Assembly (NCBI GenBank): GCA_000681355.2
Contig: JJNX02000005.1
Coordinates: 1 to 63,639, forward strand
Origin: Peptococcaceae bacterium SCADC1_2_3
GTDB lineage: Bacteria; Bacillota; Desulfotomaculia; Desulfotomaculales; Nap2-2B
Direction of reading: 5' to 3'
DNA: 63,639 bases
Of this stretch, positions 17,156 to 27,527 are shown one piece after another (the stretch's first letter is position 1; each line of letters starts with the position of its first letter). The translations under genes were made by a program, and so were the position numbers. The notes under the pieces are model-generated. The model made no database searches. It was not told the origin of the DNA and saw nothing but the letters and a program-made list of their open reading frames with translations.

Positions 17156-17286
17156 ACTAAAAATTTATATTTACTATTACGAGTCTAATATTACCATAAT
17201 TAAAGATTGTTAAAAAAGATAACCTTTAAAAAATTTTAACCGTATAAACTTATGCCTTCCGGATATAACTAAAATTAAATAAAATA

Positions 17287-17477
17287 GTAACTACTCAGGT
17301 TCATAGGGGTAAAGGCACAGAGGCACAAAGTTTTTTTGCCGGACTTACAGATCTCTAGTAGTAGGTAGTTGACAGTTTTTAGTTTACAGAAAAGGAAGTA
17401 ACAATGTTGAGACTAAAAACTCAAAACTATCCACTAAAAACTATCAATTGGACCTCTGTGCCTACCTGAATAGTTAC
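17287..17477. mobile_element. TIR/TSD mobile element, short (decayed) copy of the S23-gene element
   Basis: Bounded by GTAACTACTCAGGT (17287..17300) and ACCTGAATAGTTAC (17464..17477), an imperfect 14-bp inverted repeat, and flanked on both sides by ATAAAATA (17279..17286 and 17478..17485), a perfect 8-bp target duplication. Inside, 17334..17357 still matches the first codons of the four-helix-bundle gene in the copy at 27156..27464 (minus strand, YRDLQVWQK region). The rest of that gene is gone and replaced by an unrelated TAGTTTTTAGT-rich inverted repeat. Confidence 0.85.
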
Positions 17478-17529
17478 ATAAAATAACTAAAAATTTAAAT
17501 TTAAAAAAACAAAAAGGGGAGATCTTGCC

Positions 17530-27113: not shown

Positions 27114-27155
27114 CCTATAGTCAAATGCTGATAGCGAAGTAATTAATAATTATTT

Positions 27156-27464
27156 GTAACTACTCAGGTTCAGAGGGGCAAAGGCACAGAGGCACAAAGT
27201 TTTTTCATTTCCCTTTGCCCCTCTGTGCCTACCTGAATAGAGTTTCGACCATAACCTTCCGCCATGTTGCTGGGAATTGAAATCGCACAACGTCTCATTT
27301 GAGAAGTTAATCCGTAAGCTTCATCCTTGGGAAACCCTTTAGAAATCTTATATATTTCAGTAACTAAAGTCATTGATTTTTGCCAGACTTGCAGATCTCT
27401 ATATGTTTTCATTTCCCTTTGCCCCTCTGTGCCTTTGCCCCTCTGTGCCTACCTGAATAGTTAC
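27156..27464. mobile_element. TIR/TSD mobile element carrying a four-helix-bundle (S23/IVP) gene
   Basis: Ends are GTAACTACTCAGGT (27156..27169) and ACCTGAATAGTTAC (27451..27464). Both flanks read AATTATTT (27148..27155 and 27465..27472), a perfect 8-bp target-site duplication. Just inside lie repeated GGCACAGAGG/CCTCTGTGCC blocks, including an internal partial copy of the right end (27213..27240), so each end can fold into a long hairpin. The single cargo gene encodes a truncated four-helix-bundle protein. No transposase is encoded. It is inserted between the steA-like and spo0A genes. Confidence 0.9.
27170..27412 (-). pseudogene. Four-helix-bundle protein (S23/IVP family), truncated
   Basis: The start (YRDLQVWQKSMTLV, residues 4-17) and SIPSNMAEGYGR (about 48-59) are hallmarks of the four-helix-bundle family first found in intervening sequences of bacterial 23S rRNA genes. 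Full members have about 115-125 residues; here the family sequence stops after EGYGRNS, and the last 20 or so residues are encoded by the element's terminal repeat. Helices three and four are missing, so the product is probably not functional. The family's biochemical role is unknown; a nucleic-acid-binding role has been suggested. Confidence 0.8.
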
Positions 27465-27527
27465 AATTATTTAAAGCTATTTTAGTTTTTTGATCGGCCT
27501 AAGTCAAGTTTCGAGTTACTTATCCTT

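What the first reader, a model, noticed from the sequence alone, without database searches (positions are those of the whole stretch)
17287..17477. Second, decayed copy of the same element with its own perfect 8-bp duplication (ATAAAATA)
Two independent insertions in one window, each with a different perfect 8-bp duplication but the same ends, make chance very unlikely. This copy keeps only the first codons of the four-helix-bundle gene (17334..17357) and has a different filler with TAGTTTTTAGT repeats. So the ends suffice for past movement, and the cargo may be exchanged or lost.
Basis: seen in the sequence. Interest (0 to 1): 0.75.

Follow-up and report, generated by a model that had tools for sequence, protein, structure and literature searches.

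The report
IS66-type MITE with rRNA-intron-like gene remnants
The stretch is one of several dozen short jumping-DNA copies in this bacterium whose ends match a known transposon group (ISBst12/IS66) and whose inside derives from the small gene usually found inside split ribosomal RNA genes; a related species carries the same arrangement with that gene apparently intact in about twenty recent copies.

Summary
17287-17477 has inverted ends GTAACTAYTCAGGT and a perfect 8-bp duplication (ATAAAATA). Three congeneric genomes lack the insert; the closest has a single GTAAAATA there. It is not a decayed copy. It belongs to a uniform ~190-bp subfamily (8 of 11 copies within 2-8 bases of consensus) of a MITE family with 125 end-motif matches in the draft genome. 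Of 42 adjacent end pairs, 20 have perfect 8-bp duplications (shuffles: mean 0.5). The ends match the ISBst12 group of the IS66 family: IS66 elements in the same order end GTAACTACTCAG, and ISDge4 (GTGACTACTCAGCA/GTAACTGCTCAGCA, 8-bp repeat) was seen transposing (PMC12898284). [quoted passage not shown] this copy keeps codons 5-12. At least three IVP lineages carry such ends: the window's, one in a sister genus (22 right-end junctions, open IVP frame, 6 of 7 left flanks matching a right flank over 8 bp), and one in Desulfobacterota. Best explanation: IVP elements mobilised in trans by an ISBst12-type transposase, then shrunk by internal deletion. No transposase with exactly these ends was found in the host draft, so the driver is inferred.

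The parts
17279..17286 (.). target-site duplication, left copy (ATAAAATA)
   Evidence: read directly; single copy GTAAAATA in the empty site of G002
17287..17303 (+). left terminal inverted repeat GTAACTACTCAGGTTCA
   Evidence: 125 genome matches to the 14-base core; matches ends beside IS66 transposases
17304..17330 (+). left subterminal arm of short degenerate repeats (AGGGGTAAAGGCACAGAGGCACAAAG)
   Evidence: conserved in copies; pairs with the right arm in the fold
17334..17356 (-). remnant of the IVP (23S_rRNA_IVP, PF05635) gene, codons 5-12, with an in-frame TAA
   Evidence: family of the longer copy
17357..17449 (.). filler with TAGTTTTTAGT repeats, shared by the ~190-bp subfamily and also found alone elsewhere
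17450..17462 (+). right subterminal arm (GGACCTCTGTGCC)
17463..17477 (-). right terminal inverted repeat (GTAACTATTCAGGTA on the - strand)
17478..17485 (.). target-site duplication, right copy (ATAAAATA)
27148..27155 (.). target-site duplication of the second copy, left (AATTATTT)
   Evidence: single copy in G002
27156..27464 (.). second copy, 309 bp, longer IVP remnant
27170..27412 (-). 80-aa ORF: IVP N-terminal part (residues 5-59 match PF05635) running out through the element's arm and end
27465..27472 (.). target-site duplication of the second copy, right (AATTATTT)

Best explanation
17287-17477 is a MITE with ISBst12/IS66-type ends. Shown: (1) it inserted into an AT-rich intergenic site and duplicated 8 bp; (2) many copies with the same ends moved independently; (3) the terminal 12-17 bases match ends found next to IS66-family transposase genes; (4) longer members carry IVP gene parts between the same ends. 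Inferred: (5) an ISBst12-type IS66 transposase, acting in trans, recognises GTAACTAYTCAG and moves the element; (6) the family arose when an IVP element (hairpin arms of short degenerate repeats around a 23S-rRNA intervening-sequence-protein gene) acquired such ends, after which internal deletions and nested repeats gave shorter forms such as this ~190-bp one. The IVP remnant here codes for nothing and is a passenger.
For: Duplication statistics and genome-wide copies. Empty sites in relatives. IS66-family elements with GTAACTACTCAG-type ends: L168 with perfect 8-bp duplication TTTATAAT, L169, L161, L136, and L246 matching 16 of 17 end bases. ISDge4, ISBst12 group, TIRs GTGACTACTCAGCA/GTAACTGCTCAGCA with an 8-bp repeat, seen to transpose (PMC12898284). 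IVP between the same ends: 27156 copy, near-complete but frameshifted IVP in G003 L253, open IVP frame in the G009 element with 6 of 7 matched flanks.
Against: No transposase gene with exactly these ends was found in the host or its closest relatives: two IS66 elements in the host have ends that only partly match, and G001 and G002 have none. All are drafts, and repeats break assemblies. The shared end is short (12-17 bases). The order capture-then-deletion is reconstructed, not observed.
Confidence: 0.85

Rival explanations
1. The element is a MITE, but the driving transposase belongs to another, unrecognised family that happens to make 8-bp duplications at GTAAC ends.
For: No IS66 transposase with matching ends was found in the host, G001 or G002 although copies are many; G009 shows only a fragment at a contig end.
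Against: The 12-17-base end identity with several IS66 elements of the same order and with ISDge4, plus the same duplication length.
Confidence: 0.08
2. The IVP protein takes part in the movement (for example by binding the hairpin arms), with longer IVP-coding copies as partners of the short ones.
For: G009 has 22 right-end junctions of an element whose IVP frame is open in the pieces read. Three IVP lineages carry such ends.
Against: In the host genome the IVP copies between these ends are truncated or carry stops, yet ORF-less forms moved. IVP has no known catalytic activity; the Coxiella homologue is probably not expressed and is eroding (PMC4990558). Recent copies are intact without selection.
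Confidence: 0.06
3. Dispersed repeats spread by recombination or gene conversion rather than transposition; the 8-bp repeats are chance in AT-rich DNA.
For: Flanks are 87.5% A+T; several pairs have no matching flanks.
Against: 20 perfect 8-bp duplications against 0.5 expected, sharply at length 8, and clean empty sites in relatives.
Confidence: 0.01

Closest known systems
ISBst12 group of the IS66 family (e.g. ISDge4, PMC12898284)
   Same: End sequence GTAACTRCTCAG and 8-bp target duplication
   Different: No transposase gene; 85-400 bp instead of about 2 kb; interior not derived from the IS
Bacterial MITEs (e.g. MITEPsy1, PMC3189936)
   Same: Short, no transposase, inverted ends, target duplications, probably moved in trans
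   Different: MITEs are thought to arise by internal deletion of an IS; here the interior comes from an IVP element. MITEPsy1 resembles ISPsy2 and duplicates 4 bp
23S rRNA intervening sequences coding for IVP/S23p (PF05635, TIGR02436; e.g. Coxiella, PMC4990558)
   Same: Protein family; ORF framed by inverted arms of short degenerate repeats. A true IVS of this kind is in the host (L110); Coxiella has GACAGAT repeats upstream of its ORF
   Different: Intergenic and dispersed, with transposon ends and 8-bp duplications; in this genome mostly ORF remnants
IS66-family transposons carrying passenger genes (tIS66, e.g. ISPa75 with fosZ, PMC12888890)
   Same: A non-transposition gene lies between IS66-type ends
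   Different: Those keep their transposase genes; these elements have none

Membership tests
MITE (miniature inverted-repeat transposable element) | short, no transposase gene | tested here: met
   191 bp; no ORF of 80 aa or more inside
MITE (miniature inverted-repeat transposable element) | terminal inverted repeats | tested here: met
MITE (miniature inverted-repeat transposable element) | target-site duplication and empty sites | tested here: met
MITE (miniature inverted-repeat transposable element) | multiple dispersed copies | tested here: met
   125 end matches; 42 pairs in fetched regions
MITE (miniature inverted-repeat transposable element) | an autonomous partner with the same ends in the genome | tested here: inconclusive
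   two IS66 elements with partly matching ends in the draft; matching ends only in other genomes of the order and in Desulfobacterota
IS66 family / ISBst12 group | encodes an IS66 (DDE) transposase | tested here: not met
   none inside any element of this family; so it is not an IS66 element, only one with IS66-type ends
IS66 family / ISBst12 group | ends begin GTAA, in ISBst12-type members GTAACTRCTCAG | tested here: met
IS66 family / ISBst12 group | 8-bp target duplication | tested here: met
IS66 family / ISBst12 group | moved by an ISBst12-type transposase | not testable with these tools
   needs a transposition assay
23S rRNA intervening sequence (IVS) | lies inside a 23S rRNA gene | tested here: not met
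   intergenic, upstream of an SDR gene; the true IVS is L110
23S rRNA intervening sequence (IVS) | codes for IVP | tested here: not met
   this copy keeps only codons 5-12 with a stop; longer relatives keep more
23S rRNA intervening sequence (IVS) | inverted arms that fold into a long stem | tested here: met
   minimum free energy -61.7 kcal/mol, z = -6.1 against dinucleotide shuffles

The most novel reading that the evidence does not exclude
IVP elements are a distinct class of small bacterial mobile elements that repeatedly adopt IS66/ISBst12-type ends, with the IVP protein itself aiding spread; 23S rRNA intervening sequences would be members that landed in a tolerated rRNA site, and the window's MITEs their ORF-less parasites.
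Probability: 0.12. Interest if true: 0.85.

Novelty: new variant of a known kind. Interest (0 to 1): 0.55.

Why it matters
How the IVP-coding intervening sequences that fragment bacterial 23S rRNA spread is an open question; a transposition origin has been only a hypothesis (discussed in PMC4990558). Here IVP genes or their remnants sit in elements with recognisable transposon ends and target duplications, in three IVP lineages and two phyla, in one case with an open reading frame at about twenty recent sites. That gives a concrete, testable route for IVP dispersal and names a likely transposase group. It also shows that a MITE interior need not come from its parent IS.

Tried and rejected
'Decayed copy' was rejected by the uniform 190-bp subfamily. 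Chance was rejected by the reversed-pattern and shuffle controls. The host's own IS66 elements as exact parents were rejected because their ends match only in part, though cross-mobilisation is possible. Viral contigs and plasmids gave no match; Rfam gave none in the window. No held paper was found that describes an IS66-type MITE carrying IVP; absence from this library is not proof of absence. The best IVP loci elsewhere in the same order lack these ends, so the association is lineage-specific. Duplication boundaries of the free-standing 87-bp filler could not be settled. A call for a stretch of E. coli K-12 served no purpose.

Full report
Observation. The element at 17287-17477 begins GTAACTACTCAGGTTCA and ends (other strand) GTAACTATTCAGGTA. 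It is flanked by ATAAAATA on both sides. The sister copy 27156-27464 has the same ends and AATTATTT on both sides. In the host genome the end motif GTAACTAYTCAGGT has 125 matches with at most one mismatch, against 1 for the reversed pattern. In the fetched regions 42 adjacent inverted pairs lie 60-500 bp apart: 20 have a perfect 8-bp duplication and 26 at most one mismatch. Shuffled partners average 0.5 and 1.1. Perfect duplications of other lengths number 2. The left flanks are 87.5% A+T. Of 26 elements checked, 22 overlap no ORF of 100 aa or more.

Empty sites. A search with the flanks found the locus in three congeneric genomes, none with the insert. In G002 the target is a single GTAAAATA, one base from the duplicated ATAAAATA; G001 and G003 have diverged there. 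For the second copy, G002 has an exact empty site with one AATTATTT. G003 has a different, reversed element at nearly the same place. The 190-bp copy at G000:C10 is shared with G002 at the same site and with the same duplication, whereas the window copy is not shared, and G002 has a further insertion close by. So elements moved both before and after these lineages split.

Not a decayed copy. Eleven pairs share the AGTTTTTAGT filler; eight of them lie within 2-8 bases of a ~190-bp consensus (5 for the window copy), the other three being longer forms. Other classes in the same genome keep a longer IVP 5' part (like 27156), only the IVP 5' end, the IVP 3' end with a second filler, or a second filler alone. 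Near-identical copies of the 87-bp filler stand elsewhere without these ends, so it may be an independent repeat.

What the interior is. The ORF at 27170-27412 matches 23S_rRNA_IVP (PF05635, E=2.3e-23) over residues 5-59 and then runs out through the arm and end of the element. The host has 18 PF05635 matches, most truncated. One intact copy is a classical intervening sequence inside a 23S rRNA gene (L110); it is 52% identical to the MITE IVP over 56 residues. G003 has a near-complete but frameshifted IVP between the same kind of ends (L253). In the window element only codons 5-12 remain, with a stop. The whole element folds as one long hairpin (-61.7 kcal/mol, z -6.1).

What the ends are. IS66-family elements in the same order end in the same motif. 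L168 (IS66 transposase plus DruA, PF14236) is bounded by GTAACTGCTCAGGTTA and GTAACTACTCAGCCAC with a perfect TTTATAAT duplication. L169, L161 and L136 have GTAACTACTCAG ends next to IS66 transposase genes or fragments. In a Desulfobacterota draft an IS66 remnant ends GTAACTACCCAGGTTCA, 16 of 17 bases of the MITE end (L246). Published support: ISDge4, ISBst12 group of IS66, has TIRs GTGACTACTCAGCA and GTAACTGCTCAGCA, made an 8-bp repeat and was seen to transpose (PMC12898284). IS66 ends beginning GTAA and 8-bp repeats are general (PMC11946415). The host's own two IS66 elements have perfect 8-bp duplications but ends that only partly match.

Wider picture. The same 33-base end occurs in Desulfobacterota drafts, some copies with perfect duplications (L224, L232). 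Element-borne IVP fragments there are up to 92% identical to the window's over 53 residues (L191), which suggests transfer between phyla, although draft genomes binned from metagenomes can hold foreign contigs. A second IVP lineage there, with GGTTCAAGG arms and about 70% identical to L259's IVP over about 34 residues, also lies between such ends with an ATATTTTA duplication (L231). In G009, another genus of the host's family, contigs break inside an element with ends GTAACTATTCAGG and GTTACTACTCAGG, GGCTGTAGG arms and an open IVP frame. There are 22 right-end junctions; 6 of 7 left flanks equal one of the right flanks over 8 bp (random mean 0.06). The 85-108-bp elements L052, L060, L070 and L079 of the host look like ORF-deleted forms of this element. 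Intact IVP genes with repeat arms but without such ends are also common.

Mechanism and limits. Shown: insertion with 8-bp duplication, many independent movements, ISBst12-type ends, IVP-derived interior. Inferred: the transposase acting in trans, the order of capture and deletion, and the lack of any role for IVP. No transposase with exactly these ends was found in the host draft or its closest relatives, which is the main gap. The element is therefore filed as a MITE with ISBst12/IS66-type ends, not as an IS66 element and not as a 23S intervening sequence.

Names. Relatives are unnamed in the genome search.

Noticed in passing
L305-L332 (G009 contig ends): An IVP-coding element with ISBst12-type ends and GGCTGTAGG arms lies at 22 right-end junctions of a draft genome and breaks its assembly; the IVP frame is open in the pieces read.
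   Followed up: partly
L168:2886-5369: IS66 transposase paired with a DruA (PF14236) gene inside one element with a perfect 8-bp duplication; the host's IS66 element L123:779-3532 also has a second ORF after the transposase, not identified here.
   Followed up: partly
L113-L116 (host contigs C3, C12, C9, C3): The 87-bp filler of the 190-bp MITE occurs alone in near-identical copies without the IS66-type ends; its own boundaries and way of spreading are unclear.
   Followed up: partly
L110 (host contig C16:9129-9446): A classical 23S rRNA intervening sequence with an intact IVP ORF in the same genome.
   Followed up: partly
L187, L194, L198, L208, L213, L236 and others (Desulfobacterota drafts): Nested elements: ends GTAACTATTCAGCCACAGATTC and GTAACTACTCAGGCACAGAG follow each other within 45-90 bases, with several different repeat-arm types behind the same GTAACTAYTCAG end.
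   Followed up: no
L176:6290-6455 (G003): A different, reversed MITE sits at almost the same site as the window's 27156 copy, suggesting a preferred target or a rearranged shared insertion.
   Followed up: no
L248, L254, L259, L264 (G118): Full-length IVP genes outside rRNA, each framed by inverted arms of a different short degenerate repeat and without IS66-type ends; how these move is unknown.
   Followed up: no
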